A program made the translations under genes and the position numbers. The notes below the pieces were generated by a model that ran no database searches, had not been told where the DNA came from, and worked only from the letters and a program-made list of their open reading frames with translations. From Fimbriiglobus sp. (GTDB taxonomy: Bacteria > Planctomycetota > Planctomycetia > Gemmatales > Gemmataceae), in assembly GCA_025362195.1 (NCBI GenBank), contig JANYHV010000206.1, forward strand, positions 1 through 48,061: DNA of 48,061 bases, in the 5' to 3' direction. Below are positions 2,235-36,212 of the stretch, one piece after another; position 1 is the first letter of the stretch; the number at the start of each line of letters is the position of its first letter.

Positions 2235-5200
2235 ATGCGAACCCTGCCCCCCCCGCCCGCCCGCCGGGGCACCATCCTGCCCATGGTGGCGATGCTCCTG
2301 CCGTGCCTGTGCGCGATGACCGCGCTGGCCCTCGACTTGGGCCTGTTGGCCGTCTCCCGGACGACGTGTCAGAGCGCCGCGGACGCCGCCGCCCTCGTCG
2401 GCACGCGGACCCTGGACAACAAGCCGACGAGTATCAACAGCAACCAAGCCGCGGCCGCGGCCGCCGCGAACGCCGTCGTCGGCCTGGGCAATTTGGCCCA
2501 GAACGCGACCGTCCCGAACACGACGACCGTGCAGTTCGGCTTCTACAAGTACTACGACAGCACGACGACCCCGGCGTACAACCCGGCGCAGTTCAGCGTC
2601 GAGCAGTGGTACCCGGCGGCGTCCGCGCTGCCGGCCGGCGAGCGGTCCTGGACGGCCACCAAGGTGACCGTCACGGCCAACCAGGTCAGCCTGTTCAGCT
2701 ACGCCATGGGCGTGGCCAACTTGAAGAGCTACGCCGAGGCCGTCGCCGTGTTCCGCCCGCGGGACATCGCCATGACCCTGGACATGACCGGGTCGATGAA
2801 GTACGGGTGCATGGTCAAGGGCAACGAGAGCTACATGAGCTGCGACCCCCTGTACCCGCAGGCCGCCCACTGGTCCCGGTACCCCGGGTACCCGGCGAAC
2901 AACCCGAGTAACGGCACCAACGGCGCGACCCTGGCGAACCGGCACAACCCGTTCTTCACGACGGCGAACTACAACTTCGGCCAGGTGTACGCCCCGAACA
3001 ACTTCACCGTCAACAACGCCGGCGGCCCCCCGGCCGTCAAGGACTTCTACTACGACCCGGGTAACGTCGCCAGCCCGGCCAACCCCCTGACGACGCCGAA
3101 CGTCGCCAGCCTGCTCCCGGCCTTCCACCACTGGGACCCGACCCTGAGCAGCGTCAACTCGCCCGACACGTACATCGCGTCCAGCTACGGGTACTCGAAC
3201 TGGAGCGCGAACACGTCCGCGACGACGGCCAACACGTACAGCGTCTACCCGACGCCCGAGTTCTTCAAGGACCAGACCGATCCGCAAATGATCGGCGACC
3301 GGTACGCGCGGAAGCGCGGAGCGGAGCGGGTCACGACGCCCGACCCCGGCACCTGGGACCCGACGGCGGCCAACGGCGCGGCGTACACGCTGGCCGAGTA
3401 CCTCGGGTGGGCCAACCGGTACACCGGCGGCACGGTCGCCACGGCCACCAGTAACACCACCGGCTTCGGCCCGCCCGGCACGGCCAAGGGCCGGACGGAC
3501 GCCCCAGCCCTGACGACCAATACGAGTCTCGGCCGGTTAATCATCGCCCCGACGTACGCCGCCGATTGGAGCAACTTCCGCGACGCCACGTGGGAGCAGT
3601 ACGGGTACGACCTCGACGTGAACGCGTACGTCACCAACCGCCCGGCGGTCTGGGACCCTCGGACCGACCCGGTCACCCTGCCCCCCGCGGCGCGGGCCGT
3701 CACCGCCGGCCGGTTCAAGGGGTACACGATGGGGCCGGGCTACTGGGGCAAGAGCTTCTTCATGTGGCCGCCCGACCCGCGAACCCCGGCCGGCACGGCG
3801 GGAACGGCGGGCTACGTCCACGGGGACTGGCGGCGGCGCTTCTTCTTCAAGACCGACGCCGCGGCAAACGCCGCCATCGGCGCGAGCCAACTCGACCCGG
3901 CCATCGACAACGACCCGACTAACGGTGCCGCCGTGGACAACATTAACAAAGTCGTATTCCGCAACGGCACCGGCGCGACGCTGTTGCTGCCCGGCGCGAA
4001 CCAAATCAACTACCGGGCCGTGCTGGCGTGGATCAAGCAGCCGCCGATGTGCCTGCCGCCCAACCTGCGGGCTGGCCGCGTCGTCTACTACACGTCCGTC
4101 CCGGACGACGTGAACGTCACCGGTGTCTCGGACGTGGACAAGGACAAGGCCTTCTGGAAGACGTACATCGACTACGTCCTGAGCGACGATAACGTGTGCG
4201 CTTACGAAAACCGGGGCTGGCCCGAAGGCGGCACGCCGAACATCTTCCAGAACGCGATGGGCCAGTACGACATCGACGGGGTCGGCCTCACGCCCGCCGA
4301 CCAGGTCCCGTACATGAACTACATGGACAACCCGAGCCGGCCGCGGGCCAACTTCTGGTTCGGCCCGATCACCATGATGTCCATGATGAACGACTACAAC
4401 TCGTGGGCCGGGACGACCCACGAGACGCAGACGTGGCAGCTCAAGGCCGGGGTCAACTCGGTTCTCGACGACATCCGGAACAACCACCCGAACGACAACG
4501 TCGGCCTGAGCTACTTCTGCACCGGCCAGTACGGGGAAATCGCGGTCGCGTGCAGCCAGGACTTCGACCTGCTCAAGGCGTCGCTGTTCTACCCCAAGCC
4601 GCTCGTCGAGAGCGGCGAGGTCTGGACGAACACGGCCAAGGAGTTCCGCGCCTTCGACACGAACATGAACTGGCAGGGGTACGGCCTGGTGCAGAACGCC
4701 CAGAACGGCACCGACCCGAACACGGGCATGGCGACGTGCTTCAACATCCTGTCCCCGAGTACGACCGCGACCCCGACCCGGCCGCTCCTGCCGCCGGCCC
4801 CGTACGGGAACGCCGCTTCGCCCCGCCGCGGCCGCCGCGGGGCGTCCAAGATCGTCATGTTCGAGACCGACGGCGTGCCGAACGCGACGAGTACCACGGC
4901 CTACCAGACCCAGGGGTACAACTCGTACTACACCGTCAACGTCGGGGCTACGGCCACCGGCCAGGCGTGGACCTCGGCCGCCCCGCCGGCCCTGGCGATC
5001 GTCGATCAGATTCGCGCGCCGCTCGCCTCGACGACGGCCGGGAACAGCGGCCTCTCGACGGCCAGCAGCCCGGCCCGGGTCTACTCCATCGGCTTCGGCG
5101 ACCTGTTCGGCGTGGTCCCGGCCCCGTCGGCCGCGACCAACGCCCGGACCTTCCTACTCCAGGTCCAACAGCGCGGCGGCACCTCGGCCGCGGGCGACGC

Positions 5201-5315
5201 CGCCATCCCGCCGTACCAGATCATCACCGGGCCGTACCAGACCCGCATCGACTCGCTCAAGACGGCCTTCGAGCGCATCCTGCAGAGCGGCGTCCAGGTC
5301 ACGCTCATCCAGTAA
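2235..5315 (+). CDS. TadG-like protein with von Willebrand factor A-like segment (1026 aa)
   Basis: N-terminus RRGTILPMVAMLLPCLCAMTALALDLGLLAVSRTTCQSAADAAALVG (TadG-like); MIDAS-like DIAMTLDMTGSM. Same-strand cluster with two TadE-like genes. Confidence 0.8.
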   Translation: MRTLPPPPARRGTILPMVAMLLPCLCAMTALALDLGLLAVSRTTCQSAADAAALVGTRTLDNKPTSINSNQAAAAAAANAVVGLGNLAQNATVPNTTTVQFGFYKYYDSTTTPAYNPAQFSVEQWYPAASALPAGERSWTATKVTVTANQVSLFSYAMGVANLKSYAEAVAVFRPRDIAMTLDMTGSMKYGCMVKGNESYMSCDPLYPQAAHWSRYPGYPANNPSNGTNGATLANRHNPFFTTANYNFGQVYAPNNFTVNNAGGPPAVKDFYYDPGNVASPANPLTTPNVASLLPAFHHWDPTLSSVNSPDTYIASSYGYSNWSANTSATTANTYSVYPTPEFFKDQTDPQMIGDRYARKRGAERVTTPDPGTWDPTAANGAAYTLAEYLGWANRYTGGTVATATSNTTGFGPPGTAKGRTDAPALTTNTSLGRLIIAPTYAADWSNFRDATWEQYGYDLDVNAYVTNRPAVWDPRTDPVTLPPAARAVTAGRFKGYTMGPGYWGKSFFMWPPDPRTPAGTAGTAGYVHGDWRRRFFFKTDAAANAAIGASQLDPAIDNDPTNGAAVDNINKVVFRNGTGATLLLPGANQINYRAVLAWIKQPPMCLPPNLRAGRVVYYTSVPDDVNVTGVSDVDKDKAFWKTYIDYVLSDDNVCAYENRGWPEGGTPNIFQNAMGQYDIDGVGLTPADQVPYMNYMDNPSRPRANFWFGPITMMSMMNDYNSWAGTTHETQTWQLKAGVNSVLDDIRNNHPNDNVGLSYFCTGQYGEIAVACSQDFDLLKASLFYPKPLVESGEVWTNTAKEFRAFDTNMNWQGYGLVQNAQNGTDPNTGMATCFNILSPSTTATPTRPLLPPAPYGNAASPRRGRRGASKIVMFETDGVPNATSTTAYQTQGYNSYYTVNVGATATGQAWTSAAPPALAIVDQIRAPLASTTAGNSGLSTASSPARVYSIGFGDLFGVVPAPSAATNARTFLLQVQQRGGTSAAGDAAIPPYQIITGPYQTRIDSLKTAFERILQSGVQVTLIQ

Positions 5316-5337
5316 CCCCTCGCCGACGGCGAGTTCG

Positions 5338-5394
5338 GCCGGCCGGCGCGACCCTCCCCCTGAAAGCGGGCGGGTCGCGCCGGCCGGCTTTTTT
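5338..5394 (+). terminator. Rho-independent terminator after the TadG-like gene
   Basis: Perfect 17-bp stem gccggccggcgcgaccc (5338-5354) / gggtcgcgccggccggc (5372-5388), followed by tttttt (5389-5394). Confidence 0.85.
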
Positions 5395-5481
5395 CGCCGG
5401 CCGCGGCGGCGTTCGTGTCCTAAAGATTCCTGCGCGGCCGCAACGGCGTTCGCCGCGCTTAACACTCGCCAGGGGCAGCCC

Positions 5482-6240
5482 GTGACTAGCGCCGCGACGT
5501 TCGACAACGTCGAGAAGACGTACAAGACGGGGCTGTTCGGCCGCGGCGGGGTGCCGGCCGTCCGCGGCGTGTCCCTGGACGTGCCGGCCGGCAGCGTGTT
5601 CGGCCTGCTCGGCCCGAACCGCGCCGGCAAGACGACGCTCATCAAGATGCTCCTGTCGCTGGCCGGGCCGACGGCCGGCCGCGTCACCCGCCTCGGCGAG
5701 CCGGTGGCCCGCCGGGGCACCCTGGCCCGCGTCGGGTACATGCACGAGAACCACGCCTTCCCGCGCTACCTGAGCGCCCGCGAGGTGCTGCACTTTTACG
5801 GCGGGCTGTCCGGGGTGCCGTCGGCCGACCTGCCCGGCCGCGCCGCCAAGCTCCTCGACCGCGTCGGCCTGACCGACCGCGACCGCGAGCCGATCCAGCG
5901 GTTCAGCAAGGGCATGGTCCAGCGGCTCGGCCTGGCCCAAGCCCTGATGAACGACCCCGACCTGCTCATCCTCGACGAGCCGACCGAGGGCCTCGACCTG
6001 GCCGGCCGGCAACTCCTGCGGGACGTGGTGGCCGAGAGCCGGGCGGCGAAGAAGACCGTCGTGCTCGTGTCGCACGTCCTCACCGAGGTCGAGGAGTTGT
6101 GCGACGAACTGGCCGTCGTCGTCGCCGGCAAGGTCGCCTACCGCGGAACCCTGACCGCCCTGATCGGGGCCGCCGGGTCGCCGCGGAAGTCGCTCGAAGC
6201 CGCGCTCCGCCCGCTCTACCTGCAAGGAGGCCGGCCGTGA
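5482..6240 (+). CDS. ABC transporter ATP-binding protein
   Basis: Walker A GPNRAGKTT, signature-like FSKGMVQRLGLAQAL, Walker B LLILDEPTEGLD, H-loop VLVSHVL. Confidence 0.93.
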   Translation: MTSAATFDNVEKTYKTGLFGRGGVPAVRGVSLDVPAGSVFGLLGPNRAGKTTLIKMLLSLAGPTAGRVTRLGEPVARRGTLARVGYMHENHAFPRYLSAREVLHFYGGLSGVPSADLPGRAAKLLDRVGLTDRDREPIQRFSKGMVQRLGLAQALMNDPDLLILDEPTEGLDLAGRQLLRDVVAESRAAKKTVVLVSHVLTEVEELCDELAVVVAGKVAYRGTLTALIGAAGSPRKSLEAALRPLYLQGGRP

Positions 6241-7301
6241 GCCTGCCCGCCGCGATTCGCACCGTGCGCTGGATGGTCCGGGACACGTTCCGCCAGGCCG
6301 TCTCGACCAAACTCGCCTGGGTCATGCTGGCCACGACGGCCGTGTGCACGGCGTTCTGCCTGAGCGTCGGCGTGACCGGGGACGACCGCCCGGCCGGGGA
6401 CCGGGACTTCCGCGGGATCGTCACCGCGCCCGAAGCGATCCGCCTCGGGTACGAGGCCGCGGCCGCCGCCGGCCGGCCCGACATCACCCCCGTCGAGGCC
6501 GAGAAACTGGGCCGCGAGCGGGCCGCCGCCGACGGCCTGCCGGTCGCCGGCGGGCACCTGTCGCTCGGCTTCGGCGCGGTCGTCGTGCCGATCGGCCGGA
6601 CCCGGGACGACTCGGTCCGGCAACTCCTGCTGATCCTCGTCGGCCTGGTCGGGGACACGATGGGCGTGCTCCTCGCGCTCCTCTGGACCGCCGGCTTCCT
6701 GCCGACGTTCCTCGAACCCCACTCGGCCACGGTCTTACTCGCCAAGCCGGCCCCGCGCTGGGCGCTGCTCGTGGGTAAGTACGCCGGCGTCTGCCTGTTC
6801 GTCGGCCTGAACGCGGTCGTGTTCATCGGCGGCACCTGGACGGCGTTGGGCCTCAAGACGGGCGTCTGGTACGCGTCGTACTGGCTGGCCGTGCCGCTGC
6901 TCGTGCTGAATTTCGGCATCTTCTACGCCGTGTCCGCGTTCCTCGCCGTCTGGACGCGGAGTACCGTCGCCGCCGCCTTCGGCACGCTGCTCTTCTGGGT
7001 GCTGTGCTGGGCGATGAACTACACGCACCACCACCTGCTCGCGTACCCGGTCCTGGAGTTGCAAGGGTCGTCGAACCTGGCGATGGAAGTGTCGTACTGG
7101 TTCCTGCCGAAGCCGTTCGACCTGGGCGCGGTCTTCTACGACGCGATGCGGGCCGAGGGCTTCACGGCGAAGCCCGAGGAACTGCGCATCCTCCAGGAGT
7201 CCGGCCGCTTCCACCCCGAACTGTCGCTCCTGGCCAGCGGGGCCTTCGCCGCCGGCACCCTCGCCGCCGCCGCCGTCGAGTTCGAGTTGACCGACTACTA
7301 A
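6237..7301 (+). CDS. ABC transporter permease
   Basis: GTG start overlaps the ATPase stop (gtga); aaggagg upstream; multiple hydrophobic TM segments. Confidence 0.85.
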   Translation: MSLPAAIRTVRWMVRDTFRQAVSTKLAWVMLATTAVCTAFCLSVGVTGDDRPAGDRDFRGIVTAPEAIRLGYEAAAAAGRPDITPVEAEKLGRERAAADGLPVAGGHLSLGFGAVVVPIGRTRDDSVRQLLLILVGLVGDTMGVLLALLWTAGFLPTFLEPHSATVLLAKPAPRWALLVGKYAGVCLFVGLNAVVFIGGTWTALGLKTGVWYASYWLAVPLLVLNFGIFYAVSAFLAVWTRSTVAAAFGTLLFWVLCWAMNYTHHHLLAYPVLELQGSSNLAMEVSYWFLPKPFDLGAVFYDAMRAEGFTAKPEELRILQESGRFHPELSLLASGAFAAGTLAAAAVEFELTDY

Positions 7302-7399
7302 CCCGCGTCGCGGTGCGGTTTCAACCCGCCGACGGCGAAGCGGGGCACCCGGACCACGCGGCCGCCCTCGCGGACGCCGCGGCGAGTACAATTCTCCCC

Positions 7400-8542
7400 A
7401 TGCCCACCCCCCTTCACGGCCAGTGTAAGACGCCCGGCGGTAAGCTCGTGGCGGTCGAGGTCCGCGTGGCCGACGGGCGGCTCGCCGGCGTCCGCGTGCG
7501 GGGGGACTTCTTCCTGCACCCCGAGGCGGCGACGGCGGCCACCCTCGACGCCATCGCTCACGCCCTGAACGGGCAGCCGGCGGCGCTCGAAGTCGGGGCG
7601 CTGGCGGCGCACGTGCGGGCGGCGGTCGAGTTCGGCGTCGAGTTGCTCGGCACGACGCCCGAGGCGATTGCCGTCGCCGTGCGGCGGGCCGTGACCGGGG
7701 ACGCGGACGCCGACCCGGTCGCCCCGGCCGACCACATCGGGCGGTTCACGACGGCCGAAATCGCGCGGTTCACGGCCGGGTGGGCGGACTACCCGTGGCG
7801 AGTCCTGCCGGAGCGGCCGCTGAGTCCGGCGATGAACGTCGCCCTCGACGAGGTGCTGACCGACCGGCTGGCGAAGGGCCTGGTGCCGCCGACGCTGCGG
7901 TTCTGGCGGTGGTCGGACCCGGCGGTGATTATCGGGCGGACGCAGTCGGTCGCCAACGAGGTCGATCTGGACGCGGCGGCGGCCCGGGGGGTGACCGTCG
8001 TCCGGCGGATGACCGGCGGCGGGGCGATGTTCTTGCAACCCCACGGGGCGATCACGTACTCCCTGTACCTGCCCGAGGCGGCGCTCGCAGGGTTTACGAT
8101 CCGCGCGAGTTACGAGGTGTGCGAGGCGTGGGTGATCGAGAGCCTGCGGGGCCTGGGCGTGGACGCGCACCACGTCCCGATCAACGACATCGCCTGCTCC
8201 GAGGGCAAGATCGGCGGGGCGGCCCAGGCCCGCCGGGGCGGGGTCGTCCTGCACCACACGACGATGGCCTACGACATGGACCCCGGCGAAATGGTGCAAG
8301 TGTTGCGCATCGGCCGGGAGAAGCTCAAGGGCAAGGGCACGGCGAGCGCGGCCAAGAGCGTCAGCCCGCTCGTCCGGCAAACCGGCCTGAGCCGCGACGC
8401 CATCGTCGAAGGCCTGCAATCGAGCTTCGTCGCCCGCTTCGGCGGCACCGCGTCGGCCCTGACGGCCGACGAGTTGGCCGCGGCGGACGCCCTCGTCGAG
8501 AGCAAGTACGGCGCGGCCGCCTGGACCCGCGAGTTCGAGTAA
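7400..8542 (+). CDS. Lipoate--protein ligase family protein
   Basis: PLSPAMNVALDEVL, LRFWRWSDPAVIIGRTQSVANEVDLDAAAARGVTVVRRMTGGGAMFLQPHGAITYSLYLP is typical of the LplA/LipB superfamily; N-terminal segment resembles the lipoate ligase accessory domain. Confidence 0.85.
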   Translation: MPTPLHGQCKTPGGKLVAVEVRVADGRLAGVRVRGDFFLHPEAATAATLDAIAHALNGQPAALEVGALAAHVRAAVEFGVELLGTTPEAIAVAVRRAVTGDADADPVAPADHIGRFTTAEIARFTAGWADYPWRVLPERPLSPAMNVALDEVLTDRLAKGLVPPTLRFWRWSDPAVIIGRTQSVANEVDLDAAAARGVTVVRRMTGGGAMFLQPHGAITYSLYLPEAALAGFTIRASYEVCEAWVIESLRGLGVDAHHVPINDIACSEGKIGGAAQARRGGVVLHHTTMAYDMDPGEMVQVLRIGREKLKGKGTASAAKSVSPLVRQTGLSRDAIVEGLQSSFVARFGGTASALTADELAAADALVESKYGAAAWTREFE

Positions 8543-29091: not shown

Positions 29092-29832
29092 ATGAGCGCG
29101 TTGACCGGAGAACTCCTCGGGTGCGGCCGCACGAGCCGGAGGCCGTCGGTTTGGGTGATGCGTTTCGCCAGCGTTGCCGACCGACTGGTCGCAGCGCACG
29201 GGGTGCCCGCCCTCGGCAACTTCCGCGACCCGGTCCGCGAGATTTTTTACATCCTCCTGTCCGCGAAAACGACCGACAACCAGTACCGCCGCACCTTCCA
29301 GGCCCTCACGGCCAGATTTCCGTCGCTTTCCGACCTGGCGAGGGCCGAGGTCGCGGACATACTTTCTTGTATCGCGTCGGGCGGGCTGGCGAACAAAAAG
29401 GCGTCCCAAATCCAACGGGCCGCGGCCGCACTCATCGCCGCGGGGGGGCCGAAACCCGGTCGGCGGCTCCGCAAGATGGCCCCCGCAGAAGTCTTCGCCT
29501 TCCTCACTCGGCTCCCCGGCGTCGGACCGAAGTCTGCGCTCTGCGTCATGATGTACAGCCTGGACGCGGACGTCTTCCCGGTCGATGTCAACGTTCAACG
29601 GATCGCGGCGCGCATGGGAGCCATCCCGCAGGGACTGAAGCACTACCAGGCCCAGCAGCAGTTGCCCCCCCTCATCCCGGCGGGCAGGAGCCGCGAGCTT
29701 CACATTGCGATGGTGGTTCACGGGCGGACGACCTGTTTGCCGAGAAAGCCCAGGTGTGCGAGTTGCGGGATCGTCGAGTTTTGTCGATACGGTCGGAGGG
29801 CGACGGGTGCGCAAGGGGAGCGTGATGGCTAA
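29092..29832 (+). CDS. HhH-GPD / endonuclease III-like DNA glycosylase
   Basis: LLSAKTTDNQYRRTF, HhH LPGVGPKSALCVMM, FPVDVNVQRIAARMG with candidate catalytic Asp, FeS cluster CLPRKPRCASCGIVEFC (C-x6-C-x2-C-x5-C). Confidence 0.88.
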   Translation: MSALTGELLGCGRTSRRPSVWVMRFASVADRLVAAHGVPALGNFRDPVREIFYILLSAKTTDNQYRRTFQALTARFPSLSDLARAEVADILSCIASGGLANKKASQIQRAAAALIAAGGPKPGRRLRKMAPAEVFAFLTRLPGVGPKSALCVMMYSLDADVFPVDVNVQRIAARMGAIPQGLKHYQAQQQLPPLIPAGRSRELHIAMVVHGRTTCLPRKPRCASCGIVEFCRYGRRATGAQGERDG

Positions 29833-31915
29833 AGCGAAGGAGCGGGCGCAGGGGCGGCCGGTCGCAATCGACCTGTTTTGCGGGGCCGGGGGCATGTCCC
29901 TCGGGTTCGAGCAAGCGGGGTTCGACGTGCTCCTCGGCGTCGATGTGGACGGCCACCACGTCGCCGTTCACGAGCGGAACTTCCCGTACGGCAAGTCGCT
30001 GTGCCGGTCGGTCGCGGAGCTGACGGGCCGCGACCTGATCGCGGCCCTGGGCGGGCGGGCGGACGTGGACCTCGTCTTCGGCGGGCCGCCCTGTCAGGGC
30101 TTCAGCACGATGGGCGTCCGGGACGCGAAAGACCCGCGCAACACGCTGGTCCGGCAGTTCGTCCGGATCGTCGGCGAGGTGATGCCGAAGGCGTTCGTCA
30201 TGGAGAACGTGCCCGGGATGCTGACCGGGGAAACGAAGCCCGTCCTCGCCGACGCCGTCGAGTACCTCCGCCGCGCCGGGTACCGCGTCGTCTCCCCCGC
30301 GCGGGTTCTCGACGCCAGTGCTTTCGGCGTCCCGCAAAAGCGGAAGCGGCTCATCCTCATGGGCCTGCGCGACGACCTCGCTGGGGTTCTCGAATACCCG
30401 ACGGCGGCGGCGACCGGTCAGCCGGCCCGACCGACCGTTTGGGAAGCGATCGGCGACCTGCCGGACGTGGACGCCGACGAAGAATTGTTCGAGCACAACG
30501 ACGCCCGGTACGACCGCGTGCCGGCGACGCCTTACGCCCGCGTCCTGCGCGGCCTCGACCCCGACCCGTCCGATTTCTCCTACCCGCGGCTGTGGAACCG
30601 GGCCGTGTGTACCGGTTGTCTGAGGGTGCGGCACACGCCGAAGGCGGTCGCACTGTACGCGGCGACGCCCCCCGGGACGATGGCGTTGCCGTGCTTCTGC
30701 GTCCGTCGGTCCCACGGAGTCGCACTGTACGCGGCGACGCCCCCCGGGACGATGGTGCCGGGCCACAAGTTGCCCCGGCTCGACCCGGCCGGCATCGCCC
30801 CGACGTTGCGGGCCGGGAGCGACTCGGCCCACGGCTCGTACACCGCCCCGCGGCCCGTCCACCCCGACAAGCCCCGGTGCATCACCGCCCGGGAGGCGGC
30901 CCGCCTGCACGGGTTCCCCGACTGGTTCTCGCTGTACCCGCTTAAGTGGCACGCCTACCGCCAAATCGGCAACGCGGTCTGCCCGCCGGTTGCGAAAGCC
31001 ATCGGCCGGCAAGTCCTCGCGGCGCTCGGGGTGACTCCGACCAAGCCGAAGTTGTCCGTCGCGTTGAGCGACGCCTTCGCACTGCCGGAGGACCGCCCGC
31101 GGACCCTCAAGCGAATCCCGCAAATGGCCCACTTCCCCCCCGTGATCGCGCACCTGTTCGAGGCCGCGTTCGACGCGAAGCGGCAAAAGCTCTCCAGGGG
31201 ACCGTTCACGTTCGCGGACGTCCAGGGGGCGATCGCGGCGACGAACGCGAACCTGCCGTGGACGCGCGCCGACACGTTCGTGCCGGAGATCGCCCGCAGC
31301 CGAAACGTCCGCCGCATTCTGGAATCGTGCCTGACGCGGGGGTTCACCGTTCGACAAGTGACCGACGGGCACGCCATCGGCGAGTTCGTCCCGGTCGGGC
31401 ACCCCGAAGGGATCGACGAGAAGGGCTTCCTCCGGGTGAGTAGTCGAGCACTCGGCGACGCCGTCGCCCTCGACCTGACCGACCGCGTCCGGCTCGGCGA
31501 TCCGGAAACCCTCTTCGCCGCCCTCGAAGTCGCCGAGGTGGTCGCCGGGCTTTGGGGGGATCGGTCCGTCCGCGTTCGCTTCGAGCCGTCCGAGTACGGC
31601 GGCCCGGGCACCGCGTCGTTGCTCTACCAATCGGCGACCCCGAGCGGCCCCGTCGGACGGGGCTGTGCGGTCGCTTTCAAACTCGGGAACGTGCCGAATC
31701 GTGCCCGGCTCAGTCGCATCGCCAAGGCGACTCATCGCGACGAACTGATCGCCCTGATCCCGATCACGACGAAGCACGTGCTCGCCACTCGGCTCGAAGG
31801 GTGTTTGACGGTGCCGACGGAAGCCGGACGCCTCGTGTTCGACGTGTCGCGTTTCGACCCGGCTTCCAAGCCCAAAGCGAAAGGGATTTCCCGTGCCCAG
31901 CCGTCGCTCTTCTGA
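29825..31915 (+). CDS. DNA (cytosine-5-)-methyltransferase with long C-terminal extension
   Basis: IDLFCGAGGMSLGFEQAGF (motif I), VFGGPPCQGFSTMG (PCQ, motif IV), AFVMENVPGM (ENV, motif VI), FGVPQKRKRLILMG (VIII), YRQIGNAVCPPVAKAIGRQVLAAL (X); then ~290 further residues. Confidence 0.95.
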   Translation: MAKAKERAQGRPVAIDLFCGAGGMSLGFEQAGFDVLLGVDVDGHHVAVHERNFPYGKSLCRSVAELTGRDLIAALGGRADVDLVFGGPPCQGFSTMGVRDAKDPRNTLVRQFVRIVGEVMPKAFVMENVPGMLTGETKPVLADAVEYLRRAGYRVVSPARVLDASAFGVPQKRKRLILMGLRDDLAGVLEYPTAAATGQPARPTVWEAIGDLPDVDADEELFEHNDARYDRVPATPYARVLRGLDPDPSDFSYPRLWNRAVCTGCLRVRHTPKAVALYAATPPGTMALPCFCVRRSHGVALYAATPPGTMVPGHKLPRLDPAGIAPTLRAGSDSAHGSYTAPRPVHPDKPRCITAREAARLHGFPDWFSLYPLKWHAYRQIGNAVCPPVAKAIGRQVLAALGVTPTKPKLSVALSDAFALPEDRPRTLKRIPQMAHFPPVIAHLFEAAFDAKRQKLSRGPFTFADVQGAIAATNANLPWTRADTFVPEIARSRNVRRILESCLTRGFTVRQVTDGHAIGEFVPVGHPEGIDEKGFLRVSSRALGDAVALDLTDRVRLGDPETLFAALEVAEVVAGLWGDRSVRVRFEPSEYGGPGTASLLYQSATPSGPVGRGCAVAFKLGNVPNRARLSRIAKATHRDELIALIPITTKHVLATRLEGCLTVPTEAGRLVFDVSRFDPASKPKAKGISRAQPSLF
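30647..30755 (+). repeat. 37-bp direct repeat inside the methyltransferase gene (period 72 bp)
   Basis: gtcgcactgtacgcggcgacgccccccgggacgatgg at 30647-30683 and identically at 30719-30755. Confidence 0.95.
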
Positions 31916-32735
31916 CCGACCCCCGACGGCGGCCAAAAAGGCCAACCGGTACGGCGCACTCCTGCTGCGGATTTTCACCGCCCACTACCGGCCCGGCGCG
32001 ACGAAATTCGAGTTCGCGCGGACCGAGCTCGAGACCGCGGCCGGCGAGTTGAAAATCGCCCTCCCGAAGAACCTCGGCGACCTGATTTACAGCTTCCGAT
32101 TCCGCACCGTACTTCCGGCGGAGATCGTCCAGACCGCCACGCCAGGATACGAGTGGGTGATCGAACTGGCGGGGCATGCGCGGTACCGCATGTCGCTTTT
32201 GAAAGAGAACCGCGTCGTCCCGAGCGACAACAAGTACGAGATCAAAATTCCCGACGCCGTCCCCGAAATCGTTGCCCGGTACGCGCTCGGCGACGAGCAA
32301 GCCCTCCTGGCTAAAGTCCGCTACAACCGGCTCATCGACATCTTCCTGCGCGTGACCGCGTACTCGCTCCAGAACCACCTGCGGACGACTGTGCCCGAGA
32401 TGGGTCAAATCGAAACCGACGAAATTTACGTAGCCGTCAGGAACACCGGGCAACAGTTCGTCGTGCCCGTCCAGGCCAAAGGCGGGACGGATCAAATCGG
32501 CATCGTTCAGGTGCGTCAGGACCTCGCCCTGTGCCGCCACAAGTTCCCCCACCTCACCCCCCGGCCGGTGGCCGTGCAGTTCAAACGCGACGAGACCGGC
32601 GAGGTCATCGTGATGTTCGAGCTGGTCGAAGCCGGCGACGAGTTGAAAGTCCTCGACGAGAAGCACTATCGGCTCGTCCCCGCAAGCCAAATCAGTGCCG
32701 ACGACTTGAAGAAAATGGCCGACGCGTCCGATTGA
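31893..32735 (+). CDS. Candidate restriction endonuclease-like protein
   Basis: Overlaps the methyltransferase 3' end by 23 bp; QIETDEIYVAVRNTGQQFVVPVQAKGGTDQIGIVQVRQDL resembles a PD-(D/E)xK-type core with QAK. Function inferred mainly from context. Confidence 0.55.
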   Translation: MPSRRSSDRPPTAAKKANRYGALLLRIFTAHYRPGATKFEFARTELETAAGELKIALPKNLGDLIYSFRFRTVLPAEIVQTATPGYEWVIELAGHARYRMSLLKENRVVPSDNKYEIKIPDAVPEIVARYALGDEQALLAKVRYNRLIDIFLRVTAYSLQNHLRTTVPEMGQIETDEIYVAVRNTGQQFVVPVQAKGGTDQIGIVQVRQDLALCRHKFPHLTPRPVAVQFKRDETGEVIVMFELVEAGDELKVLDEKHYRLVPASQISADDLKKMADASD

Positions 32736-35366: not shown

Positions 35367-35440
35367 GGCGAGCCAAGAGCGTCAGCGACTGGAGATCAGC
35401 GACCGGCGAATCAGGTGCGTCAGCGACCGGAGATCAGCGA
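35367..35440. repeat. Family 2 palindrome half-element plus second degenerate unit
   Basis: ggcgagccaagagcgtcagcgactggagatcagcgacc...gtgcgtcagcgaccggagatcagcga. Confidence 0.8.
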
Positions 35441-35523
35441 TACCGGGGAATTCCATTTGCAAATCGTCTCGACTAAAGGTAGCCCTGTATTAACTCCCTC
35501 GGCTGGCTCGTCCGGCCGAGTAA

Positions 35524-35553
35524 CGAAGCCGACTCCGCAAGGAGCCGGCTTCG
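35524..35553 (+). promoter_or_regulatory. Stable GNRA-type hairpin in the leader of the NYN gene
   Basis: cgaagccgactcc (35524-35536), gcaa loop, ggagccggcttcg (35541-35553), followed by cctgtttctt; 26 nt before the ATG at 35580. Confidence 0.6.
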
Positions 35554-35579
35554 CCTGTTTCTTGGGCCATACTTCGCCC

Positions 35580-36212
35580 ATGAAAACCAACTTTTCCATC
35601 GACGGGTTCAACCTCTACTACGGCTCGCTCAAGGGCACGACTTTCCGCTGGCTCGACCTCGTCCAACTCTGCCAAAAGTGCTTCCCGGGCGACGAAGTCC
35701 ACCGCGTCCGGTACTTCACGGCCTGCGTGAAACCCACCCCGTCGAACCCGCTTCAAGCCGTGCGGCAGCAGGTCTACCTCCGGGCGCTGCGGACACTTCC
35801 GCCCGTCCAAATCCACCTGGGTAAATTCCTGATCAAGAAAGTCACCTTGCCGCTTTCAGCCCCCGTGCCGGGCGAGCCGGATAAGGCCGAAGTTATGCGA
35901 TCTGAGGAGAAAGGGTCCGACGTGAACCTGGCCAGTTACCTGTTGTTGGACGCCTTCGACGCCGACTTCCAGAAGGCCGTGGTGGTGACGAACGACTCGG
36001 ACTTGGTGACGCCCGTGAGGATCGTTCGAGAGCGGTTCGACAAACCCGTGGTCGTACTCTTCCCGTGCCGCCGGTCGCAAGACCCGAGCTACGACTTGAG
36101 CCAGGTCGCGTCGGCGTCGCCCCGCCTTCACGACTCGGAGTTGGCCGCGTCGCAGTTCCCGGCGGACATGCGCGACGCGAAAGGGCCGTTTCACAAGCCC
36201 CCGCAGTGGTAA
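35580..36212 (+). CDS. NYN domain-containing protein (putative PIN-like RNase)
   Basis: FSIDGFNLYYGSLKG, EEKGSDVNLASYLLLDAF, AVVVTNDSDLVTPVRIVRE are NYN/LabA-type acidic motifs. Confidence 0.88.
   Translation: MKTNFSIDGFNLYYGSLKGTTFRWLDLVQLCQKCFPGDEVHRVRYFTACVKPTPSNPLQAVRQQVYLRALRTLPPVQIHLGKFLIKKVTLPLSAPVPGEPDKAEVMRSEEKGSDVNLASYLLLDAFDADFQKAVVVTNDSDLVTPVRIVRERFDKPVVVLFPCRRSQDPSYDLSQVASASPRLHDSELAASQFPADMRDAKGPFHKPPQW

What the first reader, a model, noticed from the sequence alone, without database searches (positions are those of the whole stretch)
29092..32735. Overlapping glycosylase / C5-methyltransferase / candidate endonuclease cassette
Seen: three same-strand ORFs overlapping by 8 bp (29825-29832) and 23 bp (31893-31915): an HhH-GPD FeS glycosylase, a C5-cytosine methyltransferase with canonical motifs, and a protein of unknown family placed where a cognate restriction enzyme would be. 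Established: 5mC deamination gives T:G mismatches, and some RM systems carry linked mismatch-repair enzymes (Vsr, or Mig-type HhH glycosylases). Inference: this is an RM or modification-dependent defence cassette with built-in repair.
Basis: partly seen in the sequence, partly recalled or inferred. Interest (0 to 1): 0.78.

Follow-up and report, generated by a model that had tools for sequence, protein, structure and literature searches.

The report
Restriction-modification cassette with linked glycosylase
Three overlapping genes form a bacterial DNA-defence unit that marks its own DNA with 5-methylcytosine, probably cuts unmarked DNA, and carries a DNA-repair glycosylase in the position where related units carry the Vsr repair enzyme; the kind of system is known, but this glycosylase branch and the extra domain on the methylase appear new.

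Summary
The window holds glycosylase (29092-29832), C5-methyltransferase (29825-31915) and a third gene (31893-32735), on one strand with overlaps. The third gene is a Type II restriction-endonuclease homologue: PADLOC REase_II 8e-111, a confident model with a PD-(D/E)XK-like core, and a conserved E-x-D-E...Q-x-K motif. The order glycosylase-methylase-endonuclease recurs in five other Gemmataceae genomes without shared flanks, so it is one cassette.

The key comparison uses relatives of the endonuclease. When its partner is an amino-methylase, no repair gene is linked (0/7 dereplicated loci). When the partner is a C5-methylase, 22/27 have one: Vsr in 15, an HhH glycosylase in 7, never both (Fisher p=1.5e-4, not corrected for phylogeny). 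Glycosylases of this branch are also fused to C5-methylases in single ORFs in two other Planctomycetota genomes.

New relative to known systems: the glycosylase belongs to a separate EndoIII-side clade with a catalytic lysine, unlike Mig.MthI (tyrosine). The methylase also carries a C-terminal extension whose N-terminal part resembles that of a second REase family and which lacks a conserved nuclease site. Substrate specificity, recognition site and activity are inferred, not shown.

The parts
29092..29832 (+). HhH-GPD FeS DNA glycosylase (246 aa), EndoIII-side clade; predicted bifunctional (catalytic Lys147, Asp165)
   Evidence: Pfam HhH-GPD 2.5e-14; tree and active-site columns; orthologues next to C5-methylase in 5 other genomes
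29530..29586 (+). HhH-GPD active site: LPGVGPK147S ... FPVD165
   Evidence: alignment columns compared with E. coli Nth, MutY and Mig
29734..29784 (+). 4Fe-4S cysteine cluster C-x6-C-x2-C-x5-C (aa 215-231)
   Evidence: sequence; EndIII_4Fe-2S 0.004
29825..31114 (+). C5-cytosine methyltransferase catalytic part (aa 1-430), motifs DLFCGAGGMSLGF, GPPCQGFS, MENVPG, VPQKRKRL, QIGNAVCPP
   Evidence: Pfam DNA_methylase 8.5e-62; PADLOC MTase_II PDLC03326 6e-131
31115..31912 (+). C-terminal extension of the methylase (MTC); N-part ~31115-31423 resembles the N-terminus of a second REase family; C-part ~31424-31912 is faster evolving with no conserved nuclease site
   Evidence: present in all 7 HhH-linked methylases, absent from the Vsr-linked ones; hhalign to REase R' 92% prob, E 5e-7 over 108 columns; model pLDDT 60
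30647..30755 (+). in-frame 72-bp (24-aa) insertion in the target-recognition region, bounded by an exact 37-bp direct repeat (30647-30683 and 30719-30755); absent from the relatives
31893..32735 (+). Type II restriction endonuclease homologue (280 aa)
   Evidence: PADLOC REase_II PDLC03404 8e-111; AlphaFold2 pLDDT 85; fold hits among PD-(D/E)XK nucleases
32412..32480 (+). predicted nuclease active site: E174-x-D176-E177 ... Q194-A-K196
   Evidence: E174, E177, Q194 and K196 invariant and D176 nearly invariant in 27 aligned sequences; EVDSLY..EAK at the same place in divergent REase P0001
29825..29832 (+). 8-bp overlap of glycosylase stop and methylase start
31893..31915 (+). 23-bp overlap of methylase end and endonuclease start

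Best explanation
A Type II restriction-modification system with its own base-excision repair enzyme. The C5-methyltransferase marks a recognition site in host DNA with 5-methylcytosine, and the third protein cuts DNA in which that site is unmarked. Deamination of 5mC leaves T:G mismatches (and U:G at unmethylated or methylase-deaminated C) at exactly those sites. The HhH glycosylase, encoded by an overlapping gene upstream, removes the T or U and, having the EndoIII-type lysine, probably nicks the abasic site to start repair. It takes the role that Vsr plays in the related systems. Shown by computation: gene families, order, conservation, PD-(D/E)XK-like core and conserved motif of the endonuclease, and linkage of repair genes to C5 but not amino-methylases. 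Inferred: activities, T:G/U:G substrate, recognition site, and the role of the methylase's C-terminal extension (most likely an REase-derived, catalytically dead DNA-binding or partner-binding domain).
For: Third ORF is PADLOC REase_II, 8e-111, full length; confident model (pLDDT 85) with PD-(D/E)XK nucleases (AdnAB, Cas4-like ACE1, BsaXI) among the best fold hits; motif conserved in 27 aligned sequences. Same trio in 6 of 6 Gemmataceae loci where this endonuclease has a C5 partner, flanking genes not shared. Linkage test over dereplicated loci: C5 partner 15 Vsr + 7 HhH + 5 none, amino partner 0 of 7, never both repair genes, p=1.5e-4; amino-methylase identified by Pfam N6_N4_Mtase in 4 representatives. 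Paracoccus plasmid p12374 has vsr - C5-methylase - endonuclease in the same order. Window genome has no Vsr, though 20 of 95 Gemmataceae genomes do. Single-ORF fusions of this glycosylase branch with a C5-methylase in G701 and G137. A planctomycete relative of the methylase (L033) is instead next to a Mig-type glycosylase. Purifying selection on all three genes.
Against: No activity, site or methylation data exist. Fold hits for the endonuclease are weak in E-value (best 5e-3, none below 1e-3). Loci in the linkage test are not phylogenetically independent: the HhH-linked methylases form one clade. Five C5 loci have no linked repair gene. One orthologous glycosylase (L083) has no methylase beside it. 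The window's methylase carries an unusual 24-aa insertion in its recognition region and could be altered or inactive.
Confidence: 0.8

Rival explanations
1. The glycosylase is a general or housekeeping EndoIII-type repair enzyme that happens to lie beside an ordinary R-M pair.
For: It keeps the EndoIII catalytic Lys and Asp, and its nearest solved structures are EndoIII proteins. One copy (L083) stands without a methylase.
Against: Clear orthologues (E<1e-90) occur in only 7 of 95 Gemmataceae genomes, six of them in the trio. They form a clade apart from E. coli Nth and from other Gemmataceae EndoIII-like genes. Overlapping genes, repeated linkage in different flanks, and two fusions to C5-methylases argue against coincidence.
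Confidence: 0.08
2. The glycosylase is an effector of restriction: it excises a base from foreign DNA (5mC or another modified base, or an unmethylated base as PabI-type restriction glycosylases do) and so helps destroy it.
For: Restriction glycosylases with AP-lyase activity exist (PabI family, PMC10273834). A catalytic Lys for strand cleavage is present, and plant 5mC glycosylase ROS1 is among the weaker sequence relatives.
Against: A 5mC-excising enzyme would attack host DNA methylated by its own partner, most clearly in the fusions. A dedicated endonuclease is already present. In the sister systems the same position holds Vsr, a repair enzyme. PabI enzymes have a different fold.
Confidence: 0.07
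3. The cassette is no longer a working R-M system: the methylase with its 24-aa insertion is changed in specificity or inactive and the cassette is decaying.
For: The insertion in the recognition region is unique to the window. Truncated endonuclease remnants exist in two other Gemmataceae genomes, so decay does happen in this family.
Against: All three ORFs are intact, all catalytic motifs are present, and the insertion is in frame. The dN/dS values are low between other family members, though they do not test the window's own recent history.
Confidence: 0.05

Closest known systems
vsr-linked C5 R-M systems of the same endonuclease family (e.g. Paracoccus plasmid p12374: vsr - C5 MTase - endonuclease)
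   Same: Same endonuclease family (about 55% identity), C5-methylase partner, repair gene directly upstream in the same order and strand.
   Different: Repair gene is Vsr (PD-(D/E)XK-like mismatch endonuclease), not an HhH glycosylase; methylase belongs to another clade and lacks the C-terminal extension.
MthTI R-M system with Mig.MthI on Methanothermobacter plasmid pFV1
   Same: C5-methylase and endonuclease linked to an HhH FeS glycosylase; annotated there as thymine/uracil-DNA glycosylase.
   Different: Mig belongs to the Mig/MutY-side clade with Tyr at the lyase-Lys position; the window glycosylase is on the EndoIII side with Lys. The pFV1 endonuclease is annotated as NgoPII family, and gene order and strands differ.
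Amino-methylase R-M systems with the same endonuclease family (L018, L027, L028, L030, L031, L130, L131)
   Same: Same endonuclease family adjacent to a methylase.
   Different: Methylase is Pfam N6_N4_Mtase type, and no Vsr or HhH gene is linked.
CCGCGG R-M systems (Eco29kI with m5C, DraR1 with m4C; PMC10855626)
   Same: Precedent for one endonuclease family paired with either a C5 or an N4 methylase.
   Different: Those endonucleases are GIY-YIG, not PD-(D/E)XK-like; no linked glycosylase is reported in the passages read.
PabI-family restriction glycosylases (PMC10273834)
   Same: A glycosylase/AP lyase inside an R-M system.
   Different: There the glycosylase is itself the restriction enzyme, of another fold; here a separate endonuclease is present.

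Membership tests
Type II restriction-modification system | Methyltransferase gene adjacent to a restriction endonuclease gene | tested here: met
   MTase_II 6e-131 and REase_II 8e-111 in adjacent overlapping genes; pairing conserved
Type II restriction-modification system | Endonuclease cuts the unmethylated site and methylation protects | not testable with these tools
   needs purified proteins or phage/plasmid restriction assays
PD-(D/E)XK nuclease superfamily (third ORF) | alpha/beta core with catalytic D/E ... (D/E/Q)-x-K on adjacent strands | tested here: met
   predicted helix-strand order, E174/D176/E177 on one strand and Q194-x-K196 on the next; fold hits prob 0.7-0.9 to PD-(D/E)XK nucleases but E about 5e-3 or weaker
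C5-cytosine DNA methyltransferase | Conserved catalytic motifs including PCQ and ENV and the motif-X end | tested here: met
   Pfam DNA_methylase 8.5e-62, motifs read in the sequence
HhH-GPD DNA glycosylase superfamily | HhH-GPD fold with catalytic Asp; FeS cluster in the EndoIII/MutY branch | tested here: met
   Pfam 2.5e-14, Asp165, C-x6-C-x2-C-x5-C
Mig.MthI-type thymine-DNA glycosylase | Member of the Mig clade with Tyr in place of the lyase Lys | tested here: not met
   Lys147 present; lies outside the 100/100 Mig/MutY branch; only 53 bits to the PADLOC HhH model against 108 for L033
Endonuclease III (nth equivalog) | Score above the NCBIfam equivalog cut-off; groups with Nth | tested here: not met
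   85.9 bits against cut-off 211.7; separate clade from E. coli Nth and other Gemmataceae EndoIII-like genes
Vsr mismatch endonuclease | Vsr domain (PF03852) | tested here: not met
   glycosylase has no Vsr match; no Vsr in the window genome
T:G mismatch repair partner of a C5-methylase (role, not family) | Excises T or U opposite G at the methylated site | not testable with these tools
   role inferred from linkage and fusions

The most novel reading that the evidence does not exclude
In Planctomycetota an EndoIII-side HhH glycosylase branch has evolved as a dedicated partner of C5-methyltransferases, to the point of fusion into single proteins, so that methylation and repair of its deamination products act as one enzyme or complex; in the Gemmataceae form, a dead restriction-enzyme-like domain on the methylase holds methylase, glycosylase and endonuclease on the same site.
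Probability: 0.3. Interest if true: 0.72.

Novelty: new variant of a known kind. Interest (0 to 1): 0.56.

Why it matters
It shows one restriction-endonuclease family paired with three protective methylases: amino-methylase without repair, C5-methylase with Vsr, and C5-methylase with an HhH glycosylase. That natural comparison suggests the repair gene tracks the mutational cost of 5-methylcytosine rather than restriction itself. It adds a repair branch separate from Vsr and Mig, with natural glycosylase-methylase fusions that make a coupling of methylation and repair directly testable in laboratory strains.

Tried and rejected
Viral contigs searched with the methylase extension and with the glycosylase: no relatives, although the endonuclease has 20 there. 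Plasmids: none for the extension; for the glycosylase only EndoIII/MutY-like genes at about 30% identity. Annotated phages: no endonuclease relative. The extension was first suspected to be a direct paralogue of the endonuclease: direct profile comparison did not support this (hhalign prob 0.3-2%); only its N-terminal part matches a second REase family R' (P0001), and R' in turn matches the endonuclease (prob 71%, E 4e-5). A similar order of predicted helices and strands and weak fold hits to tRNA-splicing endonucleases are suggestive only, as the model has pLDDT 60. Recognition site: a lead to the CCGCGG systems was rejected because R.DraR1 is GIY-YIG. The 72-bp feature in the methylase was first read as a plain tandem duplication; its spacer is not similar to the preceding sequence (6 of 36 bases), so it is an insertion bounded by a repeat. 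A search for further fusions with L084 found none in 294 genomes, but it missed L146 of G137, whose genome is in its list, so it is not exhaustive.
Full report
Observation. The first is an HhH-GPD FeS glycosylase (Pfam 2.5e-14). The second is a C5-cytosine methyltransferase starting at the ATG at 29825 (Pfam 8.5e-62; PADLOC MTase_II 6e-131 over aa 10-428). The third has no Pfam or NCBIfam family but matches the PADLOC REase_II profile PDLC03404 at 8e-111 over its full length. The methylase has an extra C-terminal region, aa 431-696, called MTC here, with no Pfam match.

Endonuclease. Relatives were found in GTDB genomes, IMG/VR contigs and 64 plasmid records. An alignment of 27 sequences has invariant E174, E177, Q194 and K196, with D176 nearly invariant. 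The AlphaFold2 model has mean pLDDT 85. Its best fold hits include PD-(D/E)XK nucleases (AdnAB, Cas4-like ACE1, BsaXI, with EndoMS further down), though with E-values of 5e-3 or weaker. The motif lies on adjacent predicted strands, as expected for this superfamily. A divergent REase beside a related methylase (P0001 in L033) has EVDSLY...EAK at the same place. The third ORF therefore very likely is the cognate endonuclease; cutting has not been shown.

The cassette. Glycosylase, methylase with MTC, and endonuclease occur in the same order and strand in L013, L014, L064, L065 and L066, all of the same family as the window, with overlapping or tightly packed junctions; in L066 MTC is cut to its first ~103 aa. 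None of nine proteins encoded around the window cassette has a match in the sequence held around the others, and two other genomes of the window's genus lack both glycosylase and endonuclease, which fits a sporadic, mobile unit. In the closest pair (L013/L014) dN/dS is 0.09 for the glycosylase, 0.08 for the methylase catalytic part, 0.13 for the N-part of MTC, 0.34 for its C-part and 0.07 for the endonuclease (synonymous distances are above 1 and so rough).

What the repair gene tracks. The endonuclease family is found with two kinds of methylase. Eight loci have an N6_N4-type amino-methylase directly upstream (Pfam for four of them, the others by similarity), and two more are in Gemmataceae (L130, L131). 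After merging loci with endonucleases at least 85% identical and keeping those with enough upstream sequence, 0 of 7 amino-methylase loci have Vsr or an HhH gene, whereas of 27 C5 loci 15 have Vsr, 7 an HhH gene and 5 neither; none has both (Fisher p=1.5e-4). One of the seven HhH loci, L033, has the divergent REase R' rather than the endonuclease itself. Within Gemmataceae, 6 of 6 C5 loci have the glycosylase and 2 of 2 amino loci do not. The loci are not independent: HhH-linked methylases form a single clade (100/100). On Paracoccus plasmid p12374 the order is vsr - methylase - endonuclease, which is the window's order with Vsr in the glycosylase's place. The window genome itself has no Vsr.

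The glycosylase branch. It keeps the EndoIII lyase lysine (K147) and catalytic Asp (D165). In trees it lies on the EndoIII side, separate from E. coli Nth and from other Gemmataceae EndoIII-like genes, and far from the branch that holds Mig.MthI, Mig-like plasmid genes and MutY. The Mig-like genes beside C5-methylases on Thermus, Caldicellulosiruptor and Natronobeatus plasmids and on pFV1 show that HhH repair genes joined C5-methylases elsewhere too. Clear orthologues (E<1e-90) of the window glycosylase are in 7 of 95 Gemmataceae genomes; six are in the trio and one stands alone. In G701 (L084) and G137 (L146) a glycosylase of this branch and a C5-methylase form one uninterrupted ORF of 569 and 617 aa (Pfam finds both domains). 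The two place at different forks of the branch; L146 has Tyr instead of Lys. G701 is a genome with 7% contamination and the contig is short, so that case is the weaker one.

The methylase extension. MTC occurs in all seven HhH-linked methylases and in none of the Vsr-linked ones. Its first ~108 columns match the N-terminus of REase family R' (92% probability, E 5e-7), and R' matches the endonuclease over 214 columns (71%, E 4e-5). The low-confidence model (pLDDT 60) shows a similar order of elements to the endonuclease, but a direct profile match is lacking. No acidic/lysine motif is conserved. The likely reading is an REase-derived domain without nuclease activity, whose N-part is under stronger constraint; its function is unknown and my assignment (DNA or partner binding) is a guess.

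Mechanism and rivals. Established knowledge: 5mC deaminates to T, giving T:G mismatches at methylated sites, and Vsr repairs these (PMC12907096; PMC8011034). With the linkage above, the glycosylase is best explained as the base-excision counterpart of Vsr. A 5mC-excising role would make it attack its own partner's product, which is hard to reconcile with the fusions. A housekeeping role does not fit its patchy distribution. Neither is excluded without an enzyme assay.

Novelty. R-M systems with linked T:G repair are known (Vsr; Mig in MthTI). New here, as far as the searched collections and papers show, are the separate glycosylase branch, its fusions to C5-methylases and the REase-like extension. 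The paper search covers only open-licence papers, and REBASE itself could not be searched.

Noticed in passing
window 30647-30755: Exact 37-bp direct repeat bounding a 72-bp in-frame insertion in the methylase recognition region, absent from the relatives; real change or assembly error not settled.
   Followed up: partly
window 35436-36212: NYN-domain gene (Pfam 1.6e-5; PADLOC HEC-09 2e-39) 2.7 kb downstream; an NYN gene also lies about 1.5 kb upstream of vsr on Paracoccus plasmid p12374. No link shown.
   Followed up: no
L146 (G137) 2976-8473: Glycosylase-C5-methylase fusion lies next to genes matching PADLOC CARF6, Pfam ORC-CDC6-like ATPase and HD-CE, possibly one larger defence locus.
   Followed up: partly
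L033 6378-7271, L054 1-906, L057 5900-6427: A second REase family R' accompanies the same methylases: alone in L033, together with Vsr, methylase and the first REase in L054, and broken in pieces in L057.
   Followed up: partly
L132 (G591) and L133 (G665): Solitary endonuclease remnants lacking the N-terminal part, in two Gemmataceae genomes, grouping with the window's endonuclease.
   Followed up: partly
L083 6776-7558 (G453): Stand-alone copy of the glycosylase beside an HTH gene, with no methylase or endonuclease nearby.
   Followed up: partly
L142 3271-6862 (G094): Glycosylase relative next to an SNF2-type helicase with PADLOC DpdE/ZorD matches and an unknown 402-aa protein.
   Followed up: partly
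L056 (plasmid NZ_OQ821088) 2737-4789: The same R-M pair, without a repair gene, on a small mobilizable ColRNAI plasmid that also carries Tn4401.
   Followed up: no
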